Assembly: GCF_039822205.1 (NCBI RefSeq)
Contig: NZ_JBAGBW010000014.1
Coordinates: 1-57,962, forward strand
Direction: 5' to 3'
Length of the DNA: 57,962 nucleotides
Source: Thermodesulfobium sp. 4217-1
GTDB taxonomy: Bacteria > Thermodesulfobiota > Thermodesulfobiia > Thermodesulfobiales > Thermodesulfobiaceae
Shown here piece after piece: positions 17,522 to 56,223 of the stretch. Made by a program: the position numbers and the translations under genes. The number at the start of each line of letters is the position of its first letter. Position 1 is the stretch's first letter. The notes beneath the pieces are model-generated. The model had not been told where the DNA came from, did no database searches, and saw nothing but the letters and a program-made list of their open reading frames with translations.

Positions 17522-20515
17522 ATGGGGAACATTAAAAGGAGGGACTTCTTAAAACTTACATTTGCAGGTGCTGCGGCAATGGTTATGGACGGCAATATTG
17601 CTGTGCCTGCAAGGGCTTCTGTAAAGCCCTTTAAGTTAAAAGATACTAAAGTAAGTCCTTCAGTATGTATTTATTGCGGTGTTGGCTGCGGACTATTGGT
17701 TTATGCGAAAGACGGCAAGGTAGTAAACATCGAGGGAGATCCTGATAATCCTAACAACGAAGGCGGACTTTGCGCAAAGGGTGCTACCTCATACAACGTT
17801 TATGTCAATCCTCTGAGATTGAAAAAGCCTATGTATAGGGCGCCAGGTTCTGACAAATGGGAAGAAAAAAGTTGGGATTGGACTATCAACGAAGTTGCAA
17901 AGAGGATTCTGAAAACAAGAAATGAAACCTTTGTAAAAGAAGTTGGTGGTGTTCCTGTAAATAGAACTGATGGACTTGTTCAGCTGGGCGGGGCATCTCA
18001 CGATACTGATGAATGCTATCTGCTGTCTAAGTTTGCAAGGTCTCTTGGGATAGTCTATCTCGAACACCAGGCTCGTATATGACACTCTTCCACAGTGGCC
18101 AGTTTAGGCCCTAGTTTTGGAAGAGGTGCAATGACAAATCCACTAACCGATGTAAGAAATTCAGATGTTATTATGATTTGTGGTGGGAATCCTGCCGAGA
18201 ATCACCCTGCTATTGCAAGATATATAAATATGTGTAAAGATTCTGGCGGGACTGTAATCTCTGTAGATCCAAGGTTTACGAGAACTTCTTCGCTATCTGA
18301 CATATATTCGCCGATAAGGCCAGGCACTGACATAGTGTTTTTTGGCGGTTTAATTAATTACATTATCCAAAACAAAAAGTATCAAGAAGTTTATATGAAA
18401 AACTACACAAATGCTTCTTGGTTATTAAAGCCTGAATATGAATTTAAGGACGGACATTTTTCTGGATGGGATGAAGCAAAGAGAATGTACAATTATGCAA
18501 GCTGGGGATTCCAAACGGGGCCAGATAAAAAGGTTTTGAAAGATATGACCCTTCAGGACCCAAATTGTGTGTTTCAAAGGCTTGCAGAGCATTATTCTCG
18601 ATATACGCCTGAAGTTGTAGAAAATGTAGCTGGAATGAAGAAGGAAAACTTCTTGAAAATTGCTGAGGTTTATGCTTCTACTGGAGCACCAGAAAAATCA
18701 GGTTGTTTGATATATGCTATGGGTCTAACTCAACATACTATCGGCACACAAAATATTAGGGCTTTTTGTATGATTCAGCTCTTGCTTGGAAATATGGGTA
18801 TGGCTGGTGGCGGAGTAAACGCTATGAGAGGCGAGGCAAACGTTCAGGGGTCTACTGATATGGGTCTTTTGTTCCATACTTTGCCAGGTTATCTGCCAGC
18901 ACCAAACGACAAATTGCATCCTAATCTTCAGGAATTTATTAAAAAATCTATCGCACCTGATAGTTACTGGGTTAACGCTCCGAAGTTTATTGTAAGCATG
19001 CTAAAGGCATGGTATGGAGATGCAGCCACAAAGGAAAACAATTTCGGATATGACTGGGTGCCAAAGTGGTCAAGGCCAGCTTCCTGGATGCACATATGGG
19101 ACAACCTATATAAAAATGAAGGAATTAAGGGCATGATGATCTGGGGACAAAACCCCCTGGTATCGAGTCCATTTGCTGATAAAACCGGTAAGGCGCTCGA
19201 AAACCTTGAATGGCTGATGCAAGCAGATTTATTTGAGACTGAAACAGCTAATTTCTGGAGAAGGCCTCATGCCGATACGAAAAATATTAAGACAGAAGTA
19301 TTTTTGCTGCCTGTGGCATCAATGGTAGAGAAAGACGGCTCAGCTACCAATACTTCCAGGTGGCTTCAGATGAGATATAAGTCAGTAGAGCCACTTTATG
19401 AATGCAGAGAAGATTCTGTAATAATGCACGACTTAATTCATAAAATAAAAGATCTGGTAAAGGCTGATCCGTCTACGCCAAGTCCAGAATCAATACTGAA
19501 CTTAACATGGGATTACGGTGGACACAACCATAGTGCGGATGAGGTATTTAAAGAAATTAATGGCTTTGAGGTGGCAACGAAAAAACAAGTTCCAGGTTTT
19601 GCTGCGCTAAAAGATGATGGTTCTACTACAAGCGGTTGCTGGATATATTCTGGGATGTTTCCTCCTGCAGGAAATCTTGCTAAGAGGAGGAAACCAGAAA
19701 AAACTGGACTGGGACTCAATCCTGAATGGGGTTGGGCATGGCCTGTAAATAGAAGAATTCTTTACAATAGAGCTGGATGTGACCTGGAAGGCAATCCTTG
19801 GAATCCTGAAAAATATGTTATAAAGTGGGATGCTGGGCAGAAGAAGTGGCTGGGGCGAGATGTTCCTGACTTCTTACCTACAAAAGCTCCGTCAGACGCC
19901 GGAGGAACGCTGCCATTTATCATGCTTACTGGCGGACAGGGAAGAATATTTGTTCCTGGCGGTATAGTGAAAGATGGCCCTGTCCCTGAACACTATGAGC
20001 CAATTGAGTCGCCAGTTGCAAATAAAGTAAATCCTGTACAGAACAATCCAATTGCTGTGATATTTAAGTCAAACATAGACAAGTATGCCCCACTCAACGA
20101 TCCAAAATTCCCATATATTTGTACTACATATAGGGTTGCAGAACATTATCAATCGGGTGCAATCACAAGAAAAATACCTATAACCGTAGAAGCTATGCCA
20201 CAAGTTTTCGCTGAGATCGATCCTGAACTTGCAAAAGAGCTTAACATAAAAGATGGTGACAATGTCGAATTGGAATCCATAAGGGGCAAGGTTAAAGCTA
20301 AGGCATGTGTCACTACCAGGGTCCAGCCGATGACAATCAATGGCAAGAAATATCATGTAGTTGGTATTCCATGGAACTGGGGTTTTGTCGGTATAGATCC
20401 TGATAGCGGTAAAGACGAATCATTTGCTGCAAATCTTGTAACAGAGAATGTAGGGGATCCTACAAGCCTTATTCCAGAATCCAAAGCTTTGATGATTAAC
20501 TTGAGGAGGGCCTAA
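17522..20515 (+). CDS. Formate dehydrogenase catalytic subunit, selenocysteine form (UGA at 18080-18082)
   Basis: A 997-residue protein if the in-frame UGA is read as selenocysteine at residue 187. Tat signal KRRDFLKL (5-12) directs export. A [4Fe-4S] site is formed by Cys49, 52, 56 and 84, followed by the molybdopterin oxidoreductase domain and a C-terminal dinucleotide-binding domain from about residue 880. Around the UGA the product reads QARI-U-HSSTVASLGPSFGRGAMTN; the paralogue at 23758 has Cys there, and FdnG-type enzymes have Sec. The frame continues unchanged for 811 codons after the UGA, and a SECIS-like hairpin follows it. It oxidises formate to CO2 at a Mo or W bis-pyranopterin centre on the outer face of the membrane. 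Followed one base later by its iron-sulfur subunit. Confidence 0.93.
18085..18125 (+). promoter_or_regulatory. Bacterial SECIS element
   Basis: Directly after the UGA, CTCTTCC (18085-18091) pairs perfectly with GGAAGAG (18119-18125). Inside, GGCC (18097-18100) pairs with GGCC (18107-18110) around loop AGTTTA (18101-18106). The apical loop lies 18 bases after the UGA, in the range seen for bacterial SECIS elements that bind SelB. The hairpin is inside coding sequence. The equivalent stretch of the Cys paralogue does not keep the upper stem and has a mismatch in the lower stem. Confidence 0.8.
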
Positions 20516-20516
20516 A

Positions 20517-21296
20517 ATGGAAAGAGTGGCCTATATGTACGATTCTTCTAAGTGTATGGGTTGTAGGGGGTGCCAGAGTATTTGTAAGGAATGGAACGAT
20601 CAAAAAACCGATCCTACAACTTTTAATGGGGTATATACCAATCCTCCCAGTCTAAATCCTGATACCAGGATGATTATAAAATTTTATGACACATTTACTC
20701 CTGATCCAAATTTTAACTTTTTAAAATATCAGTGTTTCCATTGCGGAGATCCTGCATGTGTAAAGGCATGTCCAAGCGGAGCTCTTTTTCAGGCAGAAAA
20801 CGGCATAGTAGCATTTGATGAAAACAAGTGTATAGCATGTGGATACTGTCATAGTGCCTGTCCATTTGGGATTCCGCAAATTGGAAAAGTGATAAACAAA
20901 TGCGATATGTGTTATTCAAGGGTTATGGAGGGTTCTGAATCTGATAAAACTTCTACACCTGCCTGTGTAAAGAGCTGCCCTGCGGGCGCACTTACTTTTG
21001 GGAAAAGAAATGATTTGGTTGAGCAAGGCAAGAAAAAGGTTGAAATTTTGAAAAATAAAGGCTACACAGAAGCAAATCTTTATGGAGAAAATATTCTTGG
21101 GGGATTAGGAGTTCTGGCTATACTAAAGTATTCTCCTGAAAAATATGGTCTTCCAAAGGAACCTACATTTCCTAATGATATTGGTTTGTGGAAAGGCATA
21201 TTACATCCTTTAGGAGTAATAATGTTAGGAGGCGCAGCTGGTTTTGTCGTGCTTCATAGAGCGCTTAACCTGGGGAAAAAGGGAGGTGATCAATAA
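20517..21296 (+). CDS. Formate dehydrogenase iron-sulfur subunit (FdnH-like), copy 1
   Basis: 259 residues. Four ferredoxin-type cysteine clusters carry electrons from the catalytic subunit to the cytochrome b: CMGCRGCQSIC (about 14-24), CFHCGDPACVKACP (about 74-87), CIACGYCHSACP (about 107-118) and CDMC...CVKSCP. A C-terminal membrane anchor (VIMLGGAAGFVVLHRAL) holds it at the membrane, as in FdnH. Start ATG lies one base after the catalytic subunit stop, with GGAGGG upstream. The stop overlaps the next start. Confidence 0.93.
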   Translation: MERVAYMYDSSKCMGCRGCQSICKEWNDQKTDPTTFNGVYTNPPSLNPDTRMIIKFYDTFTPDPNFNFLKYQCFHCGDPACVKACPSGALFQAENGIVAFDENKCIACGYCHSACPFGIPQIGKVINKCDMCYSRVMEGSESDKTSTPACVKSCPAGALTFGKRNDLVEQGKKKVEILKNKGYTEANLYGENILGGLGVLAILKYSPEKYGLPKEPTFPNDIGLWKGILHPLGVIMLGGAAGFVVLHRALNLGKKGGDQ

Positions 21297-21946
21297 TGGC
21301 TGTAGAAAAGATTGAAAAACATAAGAAAAATACGAGGATATTTCACTGGTTGCACTTAATAACATTTATAGTAATGCTCTGGACTGGAATTTCTTTGTTT
21401 TATCCTTGGACCAATGTACTAGGTATGACTTTTGGCAGTCTTAGAAATGCAGCATTTATTCACAAATATCTTGGGTGGTTTTATGTGGTTCTTCCGATAA
21501 TTTATGTTTCCTGGAACTTCAAGCTATTTTCAAACTTTTTCAAAACTATTAGCACATTTACGCCCGAAGACAAGAAATGGTTATCTGTACTGGGTGGTTA
21601 TTTGCATCCCATAATAAAGACTGATGAAGTTCCTCCACAAGGCAAATACAATGCGGGGCAAAAACTCTTGGGTTGGATAATAATTGTTTTTTCAATTTTA
21701 CTGGGCATTACAGGGTTGGTTATGTTTTATTATGCGCTATTCCCTGGTTTATTGGTTCGAACGGCTATAATAGTTCACGTATTTTGTGGCACATTTTTAG
21801 GGGCTGCTGTGATTGTGCACTTTTACCTTGCTGCGGTTAATCCTACATCAAACAAAGAGTTGGGGACTATGCTTGGCAGTGGTATGATAGAGGAAGATTA
21901 TGTAAAACATCACAATGCGCTATGGTATGAAGATCTAAAAAAGTAG
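21296..21946 (+). CDS. Formate dehydrogenase cytochrome b subunit (FdnI-like), copy 1
   Basis: 216 residues with four membrane segments. Histidines in FHWLHLITF, HKYLGWFY and the VHVFCGTFLGAAVIVHFYL segment fit the two heme b sites of FdnI, which pass electrons to the quinone pool. Overlaps the iron-sulfur subunit by one base (TAATG). Ends the first three-gene operon, 10 bases before the first direct repeat. Confidence 0.93.
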   Translation: MAVEKIEKHKKNTRIFHWLHLITFIVMLWTGISLFYPWTNVLGMTFGSLRNAAFIHKYLGWFYVVLPIIYVSWNFKLFSNFFKTISTFTPEDKKWLSVLGGYLHPIIKTDEVPPQGKYNAGQKLLGWIIIVFSILLGITGLVMFYYALFPGLLVRTAIIVHVFCGTFLGAAVIVHFYLAAVNPTSNKELGTMLGSGMIEEDYVKHHNALWYEDLKK

Positions 21947-21956
21947 ACAGTTTCTA

Positions 21957-22051
21957 ATGATACAATAGATTTATAAAGTATATTTAATATTGTTTTAATT
22001 TGAGTGCAAGGTCTTATTTGGCTTTGCACTCAAAAATTGTAAATCTTTATT
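21957..22051 (+). repeat. Direct repeat A1 flanking hicBA, with hairpin
   Basis: 95 bases that recur at 22647-22742 with only two substitutions and one single-base insertion. It contains a hairpin: TTTGAGTGCAA pairs with TTGCACTCAAA (extended by GGTC/GGCT pairs to about 15 bp) around a TTATTT loop. No U-run follows the hairpin, so it is not a classical terminator. It lies between fdnI copy 1 and hicB. Confidence 0.93.
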
Positions 22052-22126
22052 AAAGAGAATTTGATATGAATATATTGATAATTTTAAATCGACGGGTTTT
22101 TGTATATATGATAAAGGAGGAGAATT

Positions 22127-22360
22127 ATGAGGGTTTTAAATTATCGTATATTTCTGAGAAGGGAGCCTGAAGGTGGTTACACGGTAACAGTTCCGTCGTT
22201 GCCAGGCTGTGTAACTTATGGTGATACATTAGACAATGCGGTGTTGATGGCAAAGGAGGCAATTGAGCTTTATATAGAAACCCTTGATTCTCATGGCGAA
22301 GATATACCGTTGGAAGATAACATATTTGAGACTACAGTCGCTGTAGAATCTAATGCCTAA
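22127..22360 (+). CDS. hicB: HicB-family antitoxin
   Basis: 77 residues with the HicB/UPF0150 fold: LNYRIFLRREPEGGYTVTVPSLPGCVTYGDTLDNA and MAKEAIELYIETL are characteristic. Neutralises the HicA RNase by binding it. The protein stops after this domain; there is no C-terminal HTH or ribbon-helix-helix domain of the kind used by longer HicB proteins for autorepression. AAAGGAGGAG precedes the ATG. It overlaps hicA by 8 bases, so the order is antitoxin then toxin. Confidence 0.92.
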   Translation: MRVLNYRIFLRREPEGGYTVTVPSLPGCVTYGDTLDNAVLMAKEAIELYIETLDSHGEDIPLEDNIFETTVAVESNA

Positions 22361-22577
22361 ACTGCCTTCATTAACTTCTCAGAAGGTGATATATATTCTT
22401 CAAAAAAAAGGATTTATACTTGAGAGAACAAAGGGGAGTCATCATATCTATATAAATTTAGAAACTAAAAGAATGGTAGTTGTGCCGTTTCATAAAAAAG
22501 ACCTGCTAAATGGGACGCTTCTTGAGATATTAAAACAGTCAGGTATAAGCAAAGAAGAACTAGAAAAATTGATTTAG
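22353..22577 (+). CDS. hicA: HicA-family mRNA interferase toxin
   Basis: 74 residues, slightly longer than the usual HicA of about 60. Double-stranded-RNA-binding-like fold with the catalytic histidine in TKGSHHIY (about 25-33), then VVPFHKKDLLNGTLLEILKQSGIS, the family's C-terminal signature. Cleaves mRNA when free of HicB. Start ATG lies within the end of hicB. The pair sits between the two formate dehydrogenase operons and is bracketed by direct repeats. Confidence 0.93.
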   Translation: MPKLPSLTSQKVIYILQKKGFILERTKGSHHIYINLETKRMVVVPFHKKDLLNGTLLEILKQSGISKEELEKLI

Positions 22578-22646
22578 AGATATTAAATTGATTTATTTAA
22601 ATTATTTCTGTAATTAATTTAAATAAATTTTAAGCTATATTTGATT

Positions 22647-22742
22647 ATGATAAAATAGATTTATAAAGTATATTTAATAATTGTTTTAATTTGAGTGCAA
22701 GGTCTTAATTGGCTTTGCACTCAAAAATTGTAAATCTTTATT
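22647..22742 (+). repeat. Direct repeat A2 flanking hicBA, with hairpin
   Basis: 96-base second copy of the repeat at 21957-22051, including the same hairpin (TTTGAGTGCAA with TTGCACTCAAA). It ends immediately before the GGAGG ribosome site of fdhE, so it forms the fdhE leader. Recombination between the two copies would remove hicBA and leave one repeat. Confidence 0.93.
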
Positions 22743-22752
22743 GGAGGTATAT

Positions 22753-23538
22753 ATGAATTTAACAAAATATGTAGAAAAGTACCCAATATTAGAATCTGTT
22801 GCTGGGTTTTGGGAAAACTATTTTTCTTGTAGAGATAAGTTGTTATCTAAACTACCTGATTTTATTTCATTAGATAGCATTAAAGTTGAAGAATTTAAAA
22901 AAGCCTTTGATGAAGGCAGACCGTATTTAGATTTATTTAAGCTAAAGATATATAAGAAGGATCTAAATTTTTTGGCAAAAGTTGTAAAAGATGATTTTGG
23001 CATAAAAGAAAAGGTAAAGTTTGATGAAAAGGATTTACCGATATTTGACAAATTAATTTTATCTGAGGATGAAATAGGCTTTGTAAAGCTAATCGTTTAT
23101 TCTTCAATTTATTCATATATTGGCGAGATAATAATGAAAAACTTTAGTCTTGCAAAGTGGTATGAGCCTATTTGCCCTGTTTGCGGTTCAAGAGCTGGCA
23201 TGGGATTTATAGAGGGGGATGGAAAGAAGAGCCTGGTATGCTCTACTTGTTATACCAGGTGGGGACACAGGAGGACAGCTTGCCCTGTATGTGCTGATGA
23301 AGAACAAAAGTCAATGAGATATTTTAGCGTAGATGAGCTTCCTGGGTGGAGAGTAGAGGTTTGCGAGGCTTGTGGGATGTATTTAAAGGTTTTGGATTTA
23401 AGAGAAAAAAATGAGGATACGCCCCTTTATCCTTTGCTTTATCTTTCGAGCTGGGATCTGGACATTTCAGTGAAGGACTTAAATTTCAGACCATCCTGGT
23501 TCAAGATATTTTATGCTGCATCCTGGCTTAATAAATAA
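22753..23538 (+). CDS. fdhE: Formate dehydrogenase accessory protein FdhE
   Basis: 261 residues. The central CPVCGSRAGMG...CSTCYTRWGHRRTACPVC...CEACG arrangement of four CxxC pairs is the rubredoxin-like iron-binding signature of FdhE, a cytoplasmic protein needed to mature Tat-exported formate dehydrogenases. The N-terminal 140 residues are helical. An upstream TTG in frame at 22741 overlaps the ribosome site; ATG 22753 follows GGAGG with normal spacing. Its position between two fdn operons suggests it serves both. Confidence 0.9.
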   Translation: MNLTKYVEKYPILESVAGFWENYFSCRDKLLSKLPDFISLDSIKVEEFKKAFDEGRPYLDLFKLKIYKKDLNFLAKVVKDDFGIKEKVKFDEKDLPIFDKLILSEDEIGFVKLIVYSSIYSYIGEIIMKNFSLAKWYEPICPVCGSRAGMGFIEGDGKKSLVCSTCYTRWGHRRTACPVCADEEQKSMRYFSVDELPGWRVEVCEACGMYLKVLDLREKNEDTPLYPLLYLSSWDLDISVKDLNFRPSWFKIFYAASWLNK

Positions 23539-23703
23539 TACTTATTCTTGTTTAAGATAAGAATATTTTATAAGAAATTTTTTTAAATTAACAATTTCAA
23601 GAATATAATTTAAATTTGCAAATAAAATATTATTTAGGATAAAATTTTTTTATATATTTAATTTGAGTATTATTATTTAACCAGTTTAATGTGATATTAT
23701 TAA

Positions 23704-23745
23704 CTTGATAGTGTTTTGAAATTATAAAATATATTCACTATCAAG
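23704..23745 (+). repeat. 10-bp inverted repeat just upstream of the Cys formate dehydrogenase operon
   Basis: CTTGATAGTG (23704-23713) and its exact complement CACTATCAAG (23736-23745) are separated by 22 AT-rich bases. The right arm runs into the ribosome site AAGGGAG. It may be an operator for a dimeric regulator or an RNA hairpin controlling translation. The Sec operon has no counterpart. Confidence 0.7.
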
Positions 23746-23757
23746 GGAGTGAAATGA

Positions 23758-26754
23758 ATGGGGAAATTTAATCGAAGAGATTTTCTAAAGCTTTCCTTTG
23801 CTAGTGCTGCGATGATGGTATTCGATGGCAATGTAGCTGTGCCGAAGGTTGCCTATGCAAGCACACCCTTTAAACTGAAGGATACCAAGGTTACAAATTC
23901 TGTATGTATTTATTGCGGAGTTGGCTGTGGTCTTTTAGTCTATTCAAAGGGCAGCAAGGTGGTAAATGTCGAAGGAGATCCTGACAATCCAAATAGTGAA
24001 GGCGGGCTTTGTGCAAAGGGCTCTACCTGTTTTAGCGTTTACGATAGCCCATTGAGGTTGAAAAAACCAATGTATAGGGCTCCTGGTTCTGACAAGTGGG
24101 AAGAGAAAAGCTGGGATTGGACTATTTCTGAGCTTGTCAAAAGAATCAAAAAAACTCGAGATAGTTCGTTTGTAAAGACGTCAAACGGAGTAGCAGTAAA
24201 TAGAACTGAGGGACTTGCGATGCTTGGCGGTGCGGCACATGGTACCGATGAGTGTTATCTGTTTGCAAAAGTTGCCAGGGCGCTTGGCATAGTTTATCTG
24301 GAGCATCAGGCAAGAATATGTCACTCTTCTACTGTTACTGCCTTGGGGCCAAGCTTTGGCAGAGGGGCAATGACAAATTCTCTGATAGATGTGAAAAATT
24401 CTGATGTAATAATGATATGCGGCGGAAATCCTGCAGAGAACCATCCAGGCAGCGCGCGCTATATCAATATGTGCAAAGAACGCGGCGGCAAGGTTATTTC
24501 TGTGGATCCGCGATTCACGAGAACATCTGCGATCTCAAACATCTATGCTCAGATAAGGCCTGGTACTGATATTGCATTTTTCGGTGGTTTGATAAACTAT
24601 ATTCTTCAAAACAATAAATATCAGGATATTTATGTAAAACACTATACCAATGCGTCTTATCTCTTGAAACCTGAATTTGATTTTCAGGATGGATATTTTT
24701 CAGGATGGGATATAACTGGTAAATCATATAATTATGCAAGCTGGGCATATCAAACTGGTCCTGATAAGAAGCCATTGAGAGACATGACCCTTCAAGATCC
24801 AAGCTGTGTGTTTCAGAAAATGAAGCTTCATTATTCAAGATATACCCCTGATGTTGTTGAAAAAATCACAGGGATTAATAAGGAAACCTTCCAAGAGATA
24901 GCACAATTGTATAGCTCAACTGGTGCGCCAGATAAGTCTGGCACATTGATGTATGCGATGGGCCTAACCCAGCACACTATTGGCACGCAAAACATCAGAG
25001 CTTTTTGTGTTATTCAGCTTTTGCTGGGCAACTTAGGTATGGCTGGTGGTGGAGTAAATGCAATGAGAGGGGAGACCAATGTTCAGGGTTCTACTGATAT
25101 GGCTCTTCTTTATAACTCTTGGCCTGGCTATCTTGCTGCCCCGAACGAAAAGCTTCATCCAAATTTCAAGGAATATCTGAAAAAGATTACGTTGCCTGAT
25201 TGCTATTGGTCTAATGCGCCAAAGTTTGCAGTTAGCATGCTTAAGGCATGGTTTGGAGACGCAGCTACGAAAGAAAATGATTTTGGCTATGATTGGCTTC
25301 CAAAGTGGTCCAAGCCAGCTTCATGGATGTATATCTGGGATAATTTGTACAAAAATGAAGGAATTAAGGGAATGATGATCTGGGGTCAGAACCCATTGGT
25401 ATCAAGTCCCTTGGGTGACAAAACTGGCAAGGCATTAGAAAACCTTGATTGGCTTATGTCTGCTGATATCTTTGAAACCGAAACGGCTAACTTCTGGAGA
25501 AGACCAGGCGCTGATCCAAAAAGCATAAAAACTGAAGTTTTTATGCTCCCTATATCTTCATTTGTAGAGAAAAATGGTTCGGCTACCAACACTTCCAGAT
25601 GGCTTCAGATGAGATACAAGGCAATAGAGCCGCTTTATGAGTCTAAAGAAGACATGGTTGTATTGGATGGTCTTGTGCGTGGTTTAAAGAAGCAATTTAA
25701 AGACGATCCTTCTACCCCTTCTCCTGAAGCTATGCTTAACTTAACTTGGGGTTATGGCGGAGATAAATATGATATTAATTCTGTGTTAAAAGAAATTAAC
25801 GGTTTTGAGGTTGCAACGAGAAAACAATTAGTTAGTTTTGCAGCCCTTAAGGATGATGGCTCTACGGCATGCGGCTGTTGGATATATTCAGGAGTATACC
25901 CGCCGGCAGGAAATTTGGCTGCAAGGAGAAAGCCTGAAAAAGAAGGAATAGGCCTTAATTCTGAATGGTCATGGTCATGGCCCGTAAACAGAAGAATTCT
26001 ATATAACAGAGCCAGTTGCGATTTGGAGGGCAATCCCTGGAATCCAAAGTTGTCTGTCATTAGTTGGGATAGCGCTCAAAAGAAGTGGACTGGCCGAGAT
26101 ATACCTGATTTTCTGCCAACAAAGGCGCCAAGCGCACCTGGTGGGGATGCTCCTTTCATAATGATACCAGAGGGCGGAGGAAGGCTTTTCGTCCCTGCTG
26201 GTATAGTGAAAGACGGTCCATTCCCTGAGCATTATGAGCCAATAGAAGCTCCTGTGAAAAATCTTATAAGCTCTGTCCAAAATAATCCTGTGGCTATAGT
26301 TTTCAAATCAAACATTGATAAATATGCCCCCTTAAACGATCCAAAATACCCATATATATGCACTACATATAGATTGACAGAACACTATCAAAGTGGAACT
26401 ATAACCAGAAAGATTCCGATCTTAGTCGAAGAGATGCCGCAGGTCTTTGCAGAAATAGACCCTGAACTTGCAAAAAATCTTGGGATTAAAAATGGTGACA
26501 AAGTAGAGCTCGAATCTATCAGAGGCAAGGTAAAGGCACAAGCTTGTGTTACATCCAGGCTGCAGCCTATTATGATTGATGGCAAAAAGTTTCATATAGT
26601 TGGGATACCTTGGCATTGGGGCTTTGTAGGAATAGATCCTGATAGCGGCAAAAAAGAATCTTTTTCTGCTAACCTGATGACTGAAAATGTAGGGGATCCG
26701 ACTTCTGAGATTCAAGAGTCCAAAGCGTTGATGATTAACTTGAGGAGGGCCTAA
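23758..26754 (+). CDS. Formate dehydrogenase catalytic subunit, cysteine form
   Basis: 998 residues, a full-length paralogue of the protein at 17522. Tat signal NRRDFLKL near the N-terminus; [4Fe-4S] cysteines in SVCIYCGVGCG and GGLCAKG; molybdopterin domain; C-terminal domain with VELESIRGKVKA. The catalytic selenocysteine is replaced by Cys188 (TGT at 24319-24321, context RICHSSTVTALG). Cys enzymes of this family are usually slower but do not need selenium. Same gene order and one-base spacing to the next gene as in copy 1, so the whole operon was duplicated. The inverted repeat at 23704 lies just before it. Confidence 0.95.
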   Translation: MGKFNRRDFLKLSFASAAMMVFDGNVAVPKVAYASTPFKLKDTKVTNSVCIYCGVGCGLLVYSKGSKVVNVEGDPDNPNSEGGLCAKGSTCFSVYDSPLRLKKPMYRAPGSDKWEEKSWDWTISELVKRIKKTRDSSFVKTSNGVAVNRTEGLAMLGGAAHGTDECYLFAKVARALGIVYLEHQARICHSSTVTALGPSFGRGAMTNSLIDVKNSDVIMICGGNPAENHPGSARYINMCKERGGKVISVDPRFTRTSAISNIYAQIRPGTDIAFFGGLINYILQNNKYQDIYVKHYTNASYLLKPEFDFQDGYFSGWDITGKSYNYASWAYQTGPDKKPLRDMTLQDPSCVFQKMKLHYSRYTPDVVEKITGINKETFQEIAQLYSSTGAPDKSGTLMYAMGLTQHTIGTQNIRAFCVIQLLLGNLGMAGGGVNAMRGETNVQGSTDMALLYNSWPGYLAAPNEKLHPNFKEYLKKITLPDCYWSNAPKFAVSMLKAWFGDAATKENDFGYDWLPKWSKPASWMYIWDNLYKNEGIKGMMIWGQNPLVSSPLGDKTGKALENLDWLMSADIFETETANFWRRPGADPKSIKTEVFMLPISSFVEKNGSATNTSRWLQMRYKAIEPLYESKEDMVVLDGLVRGLKKQFKDDPSTPSPEAMLNLTWGYGGDKYDINSVLKEINGFEVATRKQLVSFAALKDDGSTACGCWIYSGVYPPAGNLAARRKPEKEGIGLNSEWSWSWPVNRRILYNRASCDLEGNPWNPKLSVISWDSAQKKWTGRDIPDFLPTKAPSAPGGDAPFIMIPEGGGRLFVPAGIVKDGPFPEHYEPIEAPVKNLISSVQNNPVAIVFKSNIDKYAPLNDPKYPYICTTYRLTEHYQSGTITRKIPILVEEMPQVFAEIDPELAKNLGIKNGDKVELESIRGKVKAQACVTSRLQPIMIDGKKFHIVGIPWHWGFVGIDPDSGKKESFSANLMTENVGDPTSEIQESKALMINLRRA

Positions 26755-26755
26755 G

Positions 26756-27535
26756 ATGGATAGAGTGGCCTATATGTTCGATTCTTCTAAATGCATGGGT
26801 TGTAGAGGGTGCCAATCTGTTTGTAAGCAGTGGAACGATCAAAAAACTGACCCTACTACTTTTAATGGATTTTACACAAATCCTCCAACTTTGAATCCGC
26901 ATACGCGTATGATTATAAATTTCTACGATGATTTTACTGAGAAACAGAACTTTAATTTTCTTAAATATCAGTGTTTTCACTGTGGAGATCCTGCTTGCGT
27001 AAAGGCGTGTCCAAGCGGTGCCCTGTTCCAAGCAGAAAATGGCATAGTAGCATTCGATGTAAACAAGTGTATAGCATGTGGATATTGTCATAGCGCGTGT
27101 CCATTTGGGATTCCGCAAATCGGTCAAGTGATAAATAAATGTGATATGTGTTATTCAAGGGTTATGGAGGGCAGCAAATCTGATGAAACTGCCACACCTG
27201 CCTGCGTAAAAGCATGTCTGGGAGGGGCGCTGTATTTTGGCAAGAGAGACGATCTAGTGAAGCAAGGAAAAGAAAAGGTTGAAATTTTGAAAAAAGAGGG
27301 CTTTACAGAAGCGAACCTCTATGGTGAAAATATACTTGGGGGCTTGGGAGTACTGTCTATACTAAAATATGAACCTGAAAAATATGGCCTGCCAAAAGAT
27401 CCTGTTTTTCCAGTAAATACTCTTATCTGGAAGAATATAATGCATCCACTTGGGCTGGTGATGTTGGGTGGTGCTGCTGGTCTGGTATTTCTTCACAGAA
27501 TACTGCAGACTGGCAATAAAGGAGGCGATCAGTAA
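26756..27535 (+). CDS. Formate dehydrogenase iron-sulfur subunit (FdnH-like), copy 2
   Basis: 259 residues, same length and cysteine layout as copy 1: CMGCRGCQSVC, CFHCGDPACVKACP, CIACGYCHSACP, CDMC and CVKACLGG. In the last cluster the copy 1 proline after the fourth cysteine is Leu here. C-terminal membrane anchor (LVMLGGAAGLVFLHRIL). DNA around its start is almost identical to copy 1. Transfers electrons from the Cys catalytic subunit to the cytochrome b. Confidence 0.93.
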   Translation: MDRVAYMFDSSKCMGCRGCQSVCKQWNDQKTDPTTFNGFYTNPPTLNPHTRMIINFYDDFTEKQNFNFLKYQCFHCGDPACVKACPSGALFQAENGIVAFDVNKCIACGYCHSACPFGIPQIGQVINKCDMCYSRVMEGSKSDETATPACVKACLGGALYFGKRDDLVKQGKEKVEILKKEGFTEANLYGENILGGLGVLSILKYEPEKYGLPKDPVFPVNTLIWKNIMHPLGLVMLGGAAGLVFLHRILQTGNKGGDQ

Positions 27536-28185
27536 TGGCAAAAAAGATGATTGAAAAACACAAAAAGGCTACTCGTATCTTTCACTGGATTCACCTTATA
27601 ACTTTTATAGTAATGCTTTGGACGGGATTATCTTTGTTTTATCCTGCAATGAACGTTATGGGATTGACTTTTGGGAGCCTAAGAAATGCTGCTTTTTTGC
27701 ATAAATATCTTGGATTTTTCTATTTGTTGCTTCCGCTCTCTTATGCAGCATTTAATTTCAATCTATTTTCTAAATTTATAAAACTTATCAGCACCTTTAC
27801 GCCAGAAGACAAGAAATGGATGAAGGTCTTTGGAGGATATCTTGCTCCACTGATAAAGGCAAAAGAGGTTCCTCCACAGGGCAAGATCAATGCTGGGCAG
27901 AAGCTTTTGGGATGGATAATTATCGTATTTTCTTTGTGCCTTGGCTTAACTGGCTCTATGATGTTCTTCTATGCATCTTTTCCTGGATATTTGATTCAAC
28001 TGGTGATAATTGTTCATGTATTTTGCGGCACATTTTTGGGTTCAGCAATCATTGTCCACTTTTATCTTGGGGCAGTCAATCCTAGTTCAAGAAAAGAGCT
28101 TGGAACAATGCTTGGCAATGGAATGATCGATGAAGAGTACGTAATGAAGCACAATGAGTTGTGGTATGAGGAGTTAAAGAAGTAA
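27535..28185 (+). CDS. Formate dehydrogenase cytochrome b subunit (FdnI-like), copy 2
   Basis: 216 residues, same length as copy 1, four membrane segments. Histidines in FHWIHLITF, HKYLGFFY and VHVFCGTFLGSAIIVHFYL provide the heme ligands. Overlaps the preceding stop by one base. Ends the second operon, just before a strong terminator. Confidence 0.93.
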   Translation: MAKKMIEKHKKATRIFHWIHLITFIVMLWTGLSLFYPAMNVMGLTFGSLRNAAFLHKYLGFFYLLLPLSYAAFNFNLFSKFIKLISTFTPEDKKWMKVFGGYLAPLIKAKEVPPQGKINAGQKLLGWIIIVFSLCLGLTGSMMFFYASFPGYLIQLVIIVHVFCGTFLGSAIIVHFYLGAVNPSSRKELGTMLGNGMIDEEYVMKHNELWYEELKK

Positions 28186-54873: not shown

Positions 54874-56223
54874 ATGGACTTTTCTCAACTCCCTTCAATA
54901 TCTTATATTTTGGAAGAGATAAAAAAAAGTGATATTGAAATTCCACATGACTTATGTGTATTGGTTAGTCAGAGAGAGGTGGAGATTTCAAGACAGCTAA
55001 TTAAGAGTGGCAAGAGCATTGCCAAGGACAAAGTAATCGAAAGTGTTTTGGTCAAATTAAAATTTTTTAGCAATTCTGTACTCAGAAGACTGATTAACGC
55101 CACAGGAATTATTGTACACACCAATCTTGGAAGATCTCCTTTGAACGAGTCTGTAGCTAAAGAAGTGGCTAAAATAGCTACTAACTATTCAAACCTTGAA
55201 TACGATCTTTTTAATAATAAAAGAGGTAAAAGAGATTCTCTGGTGAGAGATTTACTGGTAGCCCTCACAGGAGCCGAAGATGCAACGGTGGTGAATAATA
55301 ATGCTGCTGCTGTTTATATAATTTTAAATACTATTGCGAATAACAAAGAAATTTTAATTTCAAGGTCTGAGCTCATTGAAATTGGTGGATCATTTAGGAT
55401 TCCTGATGTAATATCGTCTTCTGGAGCAATTCTGAAGGAAGTCGGGACAACCAATAAAACTCATTTAAGAGATTATGAAAATAACTTAAACGAATTAACT
55501 GGCGCTATTATGAAGGCTCACCAAAGCAATTTTTATCAAGAGGGATTTGTTCACAGTGTAGAAATTGAAGAATTGTCAGATCTTGCTAAGAAAAAAAATA
55601 TTTTATTTTTTGAAGATTTGGGCAGCGGATGCCTGGTTGATTTAAGGAAATATGGTTTAAATCACGAACCTACTGTGCAGGAAAGTTTGAAAAAGGGTGT
55701 AAATATCGTTAGCTTCTCTGGAGATAAATTGCTTGGTGCAGGGCAGTGTGGAATTATTTTGGGTGAAAATAGATTGATTGAGATGATTAGAAAGAACCCT
55801 CTAATGAGAGTATTGAGAGTTGACAAGATGACTTTGTGCGCTCTTGAGGGGACTTTGAGATTGTATCTTGATAAACGACATGAAGAAATACCTGTTTATA
55901 AAATGTTGTCGAAAACCGTAGATGAAATGATAGTTGATGCAAAAAAGGTCATCAATAACGTAAAAAATGACAATTTAATACTGAAAATTCTTGAAAGCGA
56001 AGGCAGACTTGGCGGTGGATCTACCCCTAAGAGCTCTTTCAAAACTATTGGAGTAGGGTTGATGCATAAAAAATTATCGATAAAAGAGATTGAAACTTTT
56101 CTGACAAGAAGAGATGTGCCCATAATTGGCAGGGTCTTGGATGAATATTATTTTCTTGATATGAAGACGGTTTTTCAGGACGATATTGATTTTATCTCGA
56201 GCACATTAAACCAAATGCATTAG
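54874..56223 (+). CDS. selA: L-seryl-tRNA(Sec) selenium transferase (selenocysteine synthase)
   Basis: 449 residues. PLP enzyme that converts Ser-tRNA(Sec) to Sec-tRNA(Sec) using selenophosphate. Seen: RLINATGIIVHTNLGRSPL near residue 72, NNNAAAVYIIL, and SFSGDKLLGAGQCGIILG with the PLP lysine (family SGDKLLGGPQ). ATG one base after the preceding stop. Usually followed by selB; here the next genes are convergent, so selB, selC and selD must lie elsewhere. It provides the machinery for the UGA-containing formate dehydrogenase at 17522. Confidence 0.96.
   Translation: MDFSQLPSISYILEEIKKSDIEIPHDLCVLVSQREVEISRQLIKSGKSIAKDKVIESVLVKLKFFSNSVLRRLINATGIIVHTNLGRSPLNESVAKEVAKIATNYSNLEYDLFNNKRGKRDSLVRDLLVALTGAEDATVVNNNAAAVYIILNTIANNKEILISRSELIEIGGSFRIPDVISSSGAILKEVGTTNKTHLRDYENNLNELTGAIMKAHQSNFYQEGFVHSVEIEELSDLAKKKNILFFEDLGSGCLVDLRKYGLNHEPTVQESLKKGVNIVSFSGDKLLGAGQCGIILGENRLIEMIRKNPLMRVLRVDKMTLCALEGTLRLYLDKRHEEIPVYKMLSKTVDEMIVDAKKVINNVKNDNLILKILESEGRLGGGSTPKSSFKTIGVGLMHKKLSIKEIETFLTRRDVPIIGRVLDEYYFLDMKTVFQDDIDFISSTLNQMH

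What the first reader, a model, noticed from the sequence alone, without database searches (positions are those of the whole stretch)
17522..28185. Tandem Sec and Cys copies of a whole formate dehydrogenase operon
Two complete GHI operons, equal in length and gene spacing, differ at the catalytic residue: Sec187 versus Cys188. The pattern suggests selenium-dependent and selenium-independent isoenzymes held side by side, as known for some methanogen hydrogenases and formate dehydrogenases. A whole-operon Sec/Cys duplication sharing one fdhE would be a good natural experiment on Sec loss or gain.
Basis: partly seen in the sequence, partly recalled or inferred. Interest (0 to 1): 0.75.

Follow-up and report, generated by a model that had tools for sequence, protein, structure and literature searches.

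The report
Paired selenium and sulfur formate dehydrogenases
A heat-loving sulfate reducer carries two back-to-back copies of a respiratory formate-oxidising enzyme, one built with selenocysteine and one with ordinary cysteine, most likely so it can use formate with or without selenium; the pair is real and old, but of a kind already known from other microbes.

Summary
Two complete fdnGHI operons stand in tandem (17522-21946 and 23758-28185) with one fdhE-like gene between them. The first has an in-frame TGA at codon 187 followed by a SECIS hairpin; the second has Cys188 and no SECIS. The genome has tRNA-Sec, SelA (in this window), SelB and a SelD that is itself TGA-coded. All four genomes held for the phylum (one genus, inferred to be Thermodesulfobium) carry the pair in the same order. 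The copies are sisters (76% identical; about 50% to anything else) and reciprocally monophyletic, so one whole-operon duplication preceded the split of the genus. Of 79 relatives 71 are Sec, including the nearest groups in the tree, so Sec is ancestral and the second copy lost it. Both copies are under strong purifying selection and keep all Fe-S cysteines. Two additions: the Cys operon alone has a conserved 10-bp inverted repeat at its ribosome site, unique in each genome and a candidate control element; and a hicBA toxin-antitoxin pair lies inside the array in two of the four genomes. Selenium-dependent switching is inferred from analogues, not shown. A new member of a known kind.

The parts
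17522..20515 (+). fdnG-Sec: catalytic alpha subunit of formate dehydrogenase-N, Tat signal (RRDFLKL), 997 aa with Sec at codon 187
   Evidence: TIGR01553 1184 bits vs cut-off 814; 944 bits to D. gigas FDH 1h0h, whose Sec (X) aligns with this position
18080..18082 (+). in-frame TGA read as selenocysteine (Sec187)
   Evidence: same codon is TGA in 71 of 79 relatives and in G001, G002
18077..18135 (+). SECIS hairpin after the TGA
   Evidence: Rfam SECIS_3, 37 bits, E 9.4e-5 (below the gathering score of 63); fold -19.3 kcal/mol, z -2.8; G-C to A-U change on both sides of the apical stem in two other species
20517..21296 (+). fdnH-Sec: four-cluster [4Fe-4S] beta subunit with C-terminal membrane helix
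   Evidence: Pfam Fer4_11 and Form-deh_trans; 16 Cys invariant in all copies
21296..21946 (+). fdnI-Sec: membrane cytochrome b gamma subunit
   Evidence: Pfam Ni_hydr_CYTB; seven invariant His
21957..22074 (+). direct repeat, left copy (hairpin-bearing spacer)
   Evidence: 91% identical over 119 columns to 22647-22761
22127..22360 (+). hicB-like antitoxin gene
   Evidence: Pfam HicB_lk_antitox 1.3e-14
22353..22577 (+). hicA-like toxin gene
   Evidence: Pfam HicA_toxin 1.6e-18
22647..22761 (+). direct repeat, right copy
22753..23538 (+). fdhE-like accessory gene, the only copy in the array
   Evidence: TIGR01562 49 bits vs cut-off 188, Pfam FdhE_central 26.8 vs 27: weak; G-H-I-fdhE order in several relatives
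23704..23745 (+). 10-bp inverted repeat CTTGATAGTG-22-CACTATCAAG abutting the ribosome-binding site of the Cys operon; candidate operator or leader hairpin
   Evidence: 9-bp core conserved before the Cys operon in all four genomes and found nowhere else in them; RNA fold z -4.7; alignment
23758..26754 (+). fdnG-Cys: catalytic alpha subunit, 998 aa, Cys188 (TGT 24319-24321)
   Evidence: TIGR01553 1192 bits; no SECIS fold, z +0.2
26756..27535 (+). fdnH-Cys: [4Fe-4S] beta subunit
27535..28185 (+). fdnI-Cys: membrane cytochrome b gamma subunit
54874..56223 (+). selA, L-seryl-tRNA(Sec) selenium transferase
   Evidence: TIGR00474 526 bits, Pfam SelA

Best explanation
One ancestral Sec-containing fdnGHI operon was duplicated whole, in tandem, before the genus diversified. 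The second copy then changed its catalytic codon from UGA to UGU/UGC and let its SECIS decay, while both copies kept the other conserved catalytic and electron-transfer residues (shown). Both encode periplasmic, membrane-anchored formate:quinone dehydrogenases of the FDH-N type that feed formate electrons into the quinone pool for sulfate respiration (inferred from family). The Sec enzyme is the faster one and is used when selenium is present; the Cys enzyme keeps formate oxidation going when selenium is scarce, with maturation (fdhE, the single mobA-fdhD gene, Tat) shared (inferred). Separate leaders, with a conserved palindrome only on the Cys operon, are the likely seat of differential control (inferred).
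For: Sister copies with full support in a mixture-model tree, each clade holding all species. All three subunits duplicated. Sec in 71 of 79 relatives and in all nearest groups. SECIS intact with a compensatory change in Sec copies, gone in Cys copies. tRNA-Sec (this genome) and SelA, SelB and TGA-coded SelD in all four genomes. dN/dS about 0.02-0.04 between species within each copy. All 16 Fe-S Cys and seven His kept in both. Same order and flanks in the genus. Palindrome unique to the Cys leader. Formate use reported for T. narugense and T. acidiphilum (PMC8539903). An analogous Sec/Cys pair switches with selenium in T. primitia (PMC6288185).
Against: No expression or activity data. The pair has been kept while accumulating about 24% amino-acid difference, so the copies may also differ in reaction direction, metal (Mo or W) or pH optimum rather than only in selenium need. 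A further Cys FDH of the cytosolic type exists in the genome, so the Cys copy is not the only selenium-free FDH.
Confidence: 0.72

Rival explanations
1. Functional division unrelated to selenium supply: the copies are both made but work in different directions or conditions (formate oxidation versus CO2 reduction, Mo versus W, different pH or temperature), and the Cys change is a by-product.
For: Both copies long conserved with equal constraint, neither decaying. Several relatives keep more than one FdnG that are all Sec, so FdnG paralogues are often kept for other reasons.
Against: The change is at the selenium residue itself and the SECIS was lost; residues around it (HQARI-U/C-HSSTV) are otherwise the same.
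Confidence: 0.22
2. The Cys copy was acquired by transfer from another lineage rather than by local duplication.
For: None found; Cys FdnG does occur in scattered lineages.
Against: Other Cys enzymes fall elsewhere in the tree; 7-8 separate state changes are needed. Copies are sisters in G and far closer to each other in H and I than to anything else.
Confidence: 0.02
3. The TGA is a true stop or sequencing error and copy 1 is a pseudogene.
For: TGA is a stop in the standard code; the Rfam SECIS score is below its gathering threshold.
Against: Same TGA in other species of the genus, dN/dS about 0.03 over the gene, full Sec machinery, SECIS with a compensatory pair.
Confidence: 0.02

Closest known systems
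Acetobacterium woodii fdhF1 (Cys) / fdhF2 (Sec) of the HDCR cluster (PMC6288185)
   Same: Two FDH catalytic subunits about 80% identical, Cys versus Sec at the catalytic site, each with its own small partner gene
   Different: Soluble CO2-reducing FdhF subunits of a hydrogen-dependent CO2 reductase; here a periplasmic quinone-linked FDH-N with all three subunits duplicated
Treponema primitia fdhF-Sec / fdhF-Cys (Matson et al. 2010, as described in PMC6288185)
   Same: Sec and Cys paralogues in one genome, the Sec copy with SECIS; shows selenium control of transcription (up to 40-fold)
   Different: Genes separated by 14 others, acetogen, FdhF type; selenium control is not shown here
Methanococcus maripaludis Sec/Cys isoenzymes (PMC11097638)
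   Same: Parallel Sec and Cys enzyme sets, Cys set repressed when selenium is adequate (HrsM)
   Different: Archaeal SECIS system; mainly hydrogenases, HdrA and Fwd; its FDHs have no Cys isoform
Escherichia coli FDH-N (FdnGHI)
   Same: Same subunit plan, Tat-exported Sec alpha subunit; alpha matches PDB 1kqf at E 2.4e-263
   Different: No Cys counterpart of FdnG there (own knowledge); here beta and gamma are below the NCBIfam equivalog cut-offs
Humidesulfovibrio sp. GS33 Cys and Sec FdnG (L090/L139 and L140)
   Same: A second, independent case of closely related Sec and Cys FdnG in one genome (path 0.23 in the tree)
   Different: On separate short contigs, so tandem arrangement unknown; a deltaproteobacterial lineage

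Membership tests
Formate dehydrogenase-N (FdnGHI) | alpha subunit above the TIGR01553 cut-off (814 bits) | tested here: met
   1184 and 1192 bits
Formate dehydrogenase-N (FdnGHI) | Tat signal on alpha | tested here: met
   RRDFLKL near the N-terminus in both copies, read from sequence
Formate dehydrogenase-N (FdnGHI) | beta subunit with four [4Fe-4S] sites and membrane helix | tested here: inconclusive
   16 invariant Cys, Form-deh_trans met for copy 1, but TIGR01582 228 bits vs cut-off 335
Formate dehydrogenase-N (FdnGHI) | gamma cytochrome b | tested here: inconclusive
   Pfam cytochrome b561 family met; TIGR01583 104 bits vs cut-off 116 for copy 2
Bacterial selenoprotein | in-frame UGA at a known Sec position with a downstream SECIS | tested here: met
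   SECIS_3 E 9.4e-5 though below gathering
Bacterial selenoprotein | genome encodes tRNA-Sec, SelA, SelB, SelD | tested here: met
   tRNA-Sec 76.1 bits vs cut-off 47 (own genome only), SelB 349 vs 242, SelA 526 vs 268, SelD 325 vs 125; the three proteins also in the other three genomes
Bacterial selenoprotein | selenium actually incorporated | not testable with these tools
   needs 75Se labelling or mass spectrometry
Selenium-responsive Sec/Cys isoenzyme pair | Sec and Cys paralogues of the same enzyme in one genome | tested here: met
Selenium-responsive Sec/Cys isoenzyme pair | reciprocal expression with selenium supply | not testable with these tools
   no expression data; conserved leader element only on the Cys operon
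FdhE accessory protein | above the TIGR01562 cut-off (188 bits) | tested here: not met
   49 bits; Pfam FdhE_central 26.8 vs 27; called fdhE-like on position and partial match only

The most novel reading that the evidence does not exclude
The Cys operon is switched by a selenium-responsive element of undescribed type: a perfect 10-bp inverted repeat with a 22-nt loop, placed at the ribosome-binding site, present once per genome and only in front of the Cys operon, either bound by a repressor or folding in the mRNA leader, so that the Cys enzyme is made only when selenium is short.
Probability: 0.3. Interest if true: 0.6.

Novelty: new member of a known kind. Interest (0 to 1): 0.45.

Why it matters
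It is a clean natural experiment on selenocysteine loss: the same respiratory enzyme, duplicated whole and kept as Sec and Cys forms in every genome held of a phylum-level lineage, with direction of change resolved. The two purified enzymes could show what Sec buys in a formate dehydrogenase that matters for CO2/formate catalysis, and the Cys leader offers a specific place to look for bacterial selenium sensing, which is poorly understood.

Tried and rejected
The related-loci scan was seeded with the Cys copy, so more distant FdnG are under-sampled; 208 places matched and only 80 were kept. Lateral origin of one copy: rejected by the tree. TGA as stop or error: rejected. Gene conversion homogenising the copies: no window in G or I, but 31 overlapping 60-nt windows in fdnH exceed orthologue identity; those printed are in its Fe-S part, in the window genome and G001, so limited local conversion there is possible and H alone should not be used for dating. 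Synonymous-site depression over the SECIS: only weak (6-19% of windows as low in Sec copies), not claimed. A Sec/Cys pair on one contig of the Syntrophobacteraceae genome G020 (C205, about 7 kb apart) looked like a second tandem case, but its Sec member groups nearest FdnG of other genomes and its Cys member was not placed in the tree, so it is left open. Consensus promoter and terminator scans gave little beyond chance. The hairpin in the fdnI-fdhE spacer as a terminator: no T run follows it, left open.

Full report
What is there. The window holds two complete fdnGHI operons on the + strand, 17522-21946 and 23758-28185, with identical gene spacing and nearly identical gene lengths. The first alpha gene has an in-frame TGA at codon 187 (18080-18082); read through, it gives one 997-aa protein. 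The second has TGT at codon 188 and is open throughout (998 aa). The alpha subunits are 76% identical, and the beta and gamma subunits 82% and 75%. Both alphas exceed the curated cut-off of TIGR01553, formate dehydrogenase-N alpha, and copy 1 aligns end to end with solved Sec formate dehydrogenases; the Sec (X) of D. gigas 1h0h falls on this TGA.

Is the TGA selenocysteine? Yes, as far as sequence can show. It sits in the motif HQARI-U-HSSTV and in 71 of 79 relatives the same codon is an in-frame stop, with Cys in the other 8. A SECIS_3-like hairpin follows in the window and in the two other species where the stretch is present (E 9e-5, 3e-5 and 4e-4, all under the Rfam gathering score). The window's hairpin folds better than nearly all shuffles (z -2.8), while the same stretch of the Cys copy does not (z +0.2). 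Between the window and the other two species the apical stem changes on both sides, GGCC/GGCC to GACC/GGTC, although this alters an amino acid. The genome encodes tRNA-Sec (C11:24289-24378), and SelB, SelA and a SelD with its own in-frame TGA; the three proteins are present in all four genomes of the genus. selA lies in this window at 54874-56223. tRNA-Sec, selB, a tatC-like gene and a mobA-fdhD fusion stand together, and the selB to fdhD distance is the same 1407 bases in all four genomes.

Who carries it. The held phylum has four genomes of one genus. Its make-up, a single-genus phylum of about 2 Mb genomes, points to Thermodesulfobium (Thermodesulfobiota); this naming is inference. All four have the tandem pair; in G003 (L021) the contig begins inside the first copy, after the Sec codon. 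Order and flanks (lplA, lipA, dld upstream) are the same in G001 and G002.

History. Trees of the alpha subunit (LG+G4 with 87 rows; LG+C20 mixture with 39 rows) put the Sec copies in one clade and the Cys copies in another, each with 99-100% support, and the two as sisters with 100/100. Neighbouring groups are Bacillota and Chloroflexota enzymes that are almost all Sec. The exact sister group of the eight is not resolved. The simplest history is one duplication on the stem of the genus followed by one Sec-to-Cys change; the reverse would need a loss before duplication plus a regain with SECIS. Sec-to-Cys change in FdhA is a documented trend (7 events, none in the other direction; PMC1794560). 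Both copies evolve under strong constraint (dN/dS about 0.02-0.04 between species). Every one of the 16 beta-subunit cysteines and seven gamma-subunit histidines is kept in both. Neither copy is decaying.

Surroundings. Several relatives have the order G-H-I-fdhE, so the fdhE-like gene (22753-23538) belongs to the first unit and the second lacks one. Its match to FdhE models is below their cut-offs. Only one FdhD is found per genome, so maturation is probably shared. Between fdnI and fdhE the window and G003 carry a hicB-hicA pair flanked, in the window, by about 119-bp direct repeats; G001 and G002 have only a single short spacer there. The Cys operon has a perfect inverted repeat, CTTGATAGTG-22-CACTATCAAG, ending at its ribosome-binding site (23704-23745). 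It is present in front of the Cys operon in all four genomes (outermost pair broken in G003) and its 9-bp core pair occurs nowhere else in them; the reversed control pattern has no match. The Sec leader has nothing like it.

How it most likely works. Both enzymes should oxidise formate in the periplasm and pass electrons through FdnH and FdnI to the quinone pool, feeding sulfate reduction; formate use is reported for T. narugense and T. acidiphilum (PMC8539903). In E. coli FdhH a Sec-to-Cys exchange lowered turnover more than a hundredfold and also lowered Km (cited in PMC6288185). The Sec form would therefore be preferred with selenium, the Cys form held in reserve. That the choice follows selenium is inferred from Treponema primitia, Acetobacterium and Methanococcus. 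The palindrome is the best candidate site for such control, untested.

Novelty. Sec/Cys FDH pairs are known, for example in A. woodii. Among 50 genomes of relatives searched, a few hold both Sec and Cys FdnG, and Humidesulfovibrio holds a closely related pair. What is distinctive here is duplication of the whole three-gene respiratory operon in tandem, kept across every genome held of a deep lineage, with direction of change and SECIS decay readable. I found no paper describing this pair, though the library is partial; a 2025 survey counts four selenoproteins in a Thermodesulfobium genome (PMC12013277). It is a new member of a known kind.

Noticed in passing
22127-22577, repeats 21957-22074 and 22647-22761: A hicBA toxin-antitoxin pair sits between fdnI and fdhE, flanked by 91% identical direct repeats of about 119 bp that carry a hairpin; present in the window and G003, absent in G001 and G002, which have one short spacer with a similar hairpin. 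Looks like an insertion that duplicated the spacer.
   Followed up: partly
23704-23745: Conserved 10-bp inverted repeat at the ribosome-binding site of the Cys operon; its core occurs once per genome in all four genomes.
   Followed up: partly
L109 8290-12354 (G000:C11): tRNA-Sec, selB, a tatC-like gene and a mobA-fdhD fusion gene in a row: decoding, export and maturation for a Sec formate dehydrogenase in one cluster; selB to fdhD spacing is the same in four genomes.
   Followed up: partly
fdnH of both copies (20517-21296 and 26756-27535), from about codon 90: Stretches where the two copies in one genome are more alike than orthologues between species, suggesting local gene conversion in the Fe-S core.
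   Followed up: partly
L112 7167-9884 (G000:C13): A further, cytosolic-type FDH alpha (905 aa, Cys in DHCARLCHSSTV, TIGR01591 873 bits) next to NuoE/NuoF-like genes.
   Followed up: partly
L139/L090 and L140 (G047, Humidesulfovibrio): Independent close Sec/Cys FdnG pair in one genome.
   Followed up: no
G020:C205:26544-39319 (L132): Sec and Cys FdnG about 7 kb apart on one strand in a Syntrophobacteraceae genome.
   Followed up: partly
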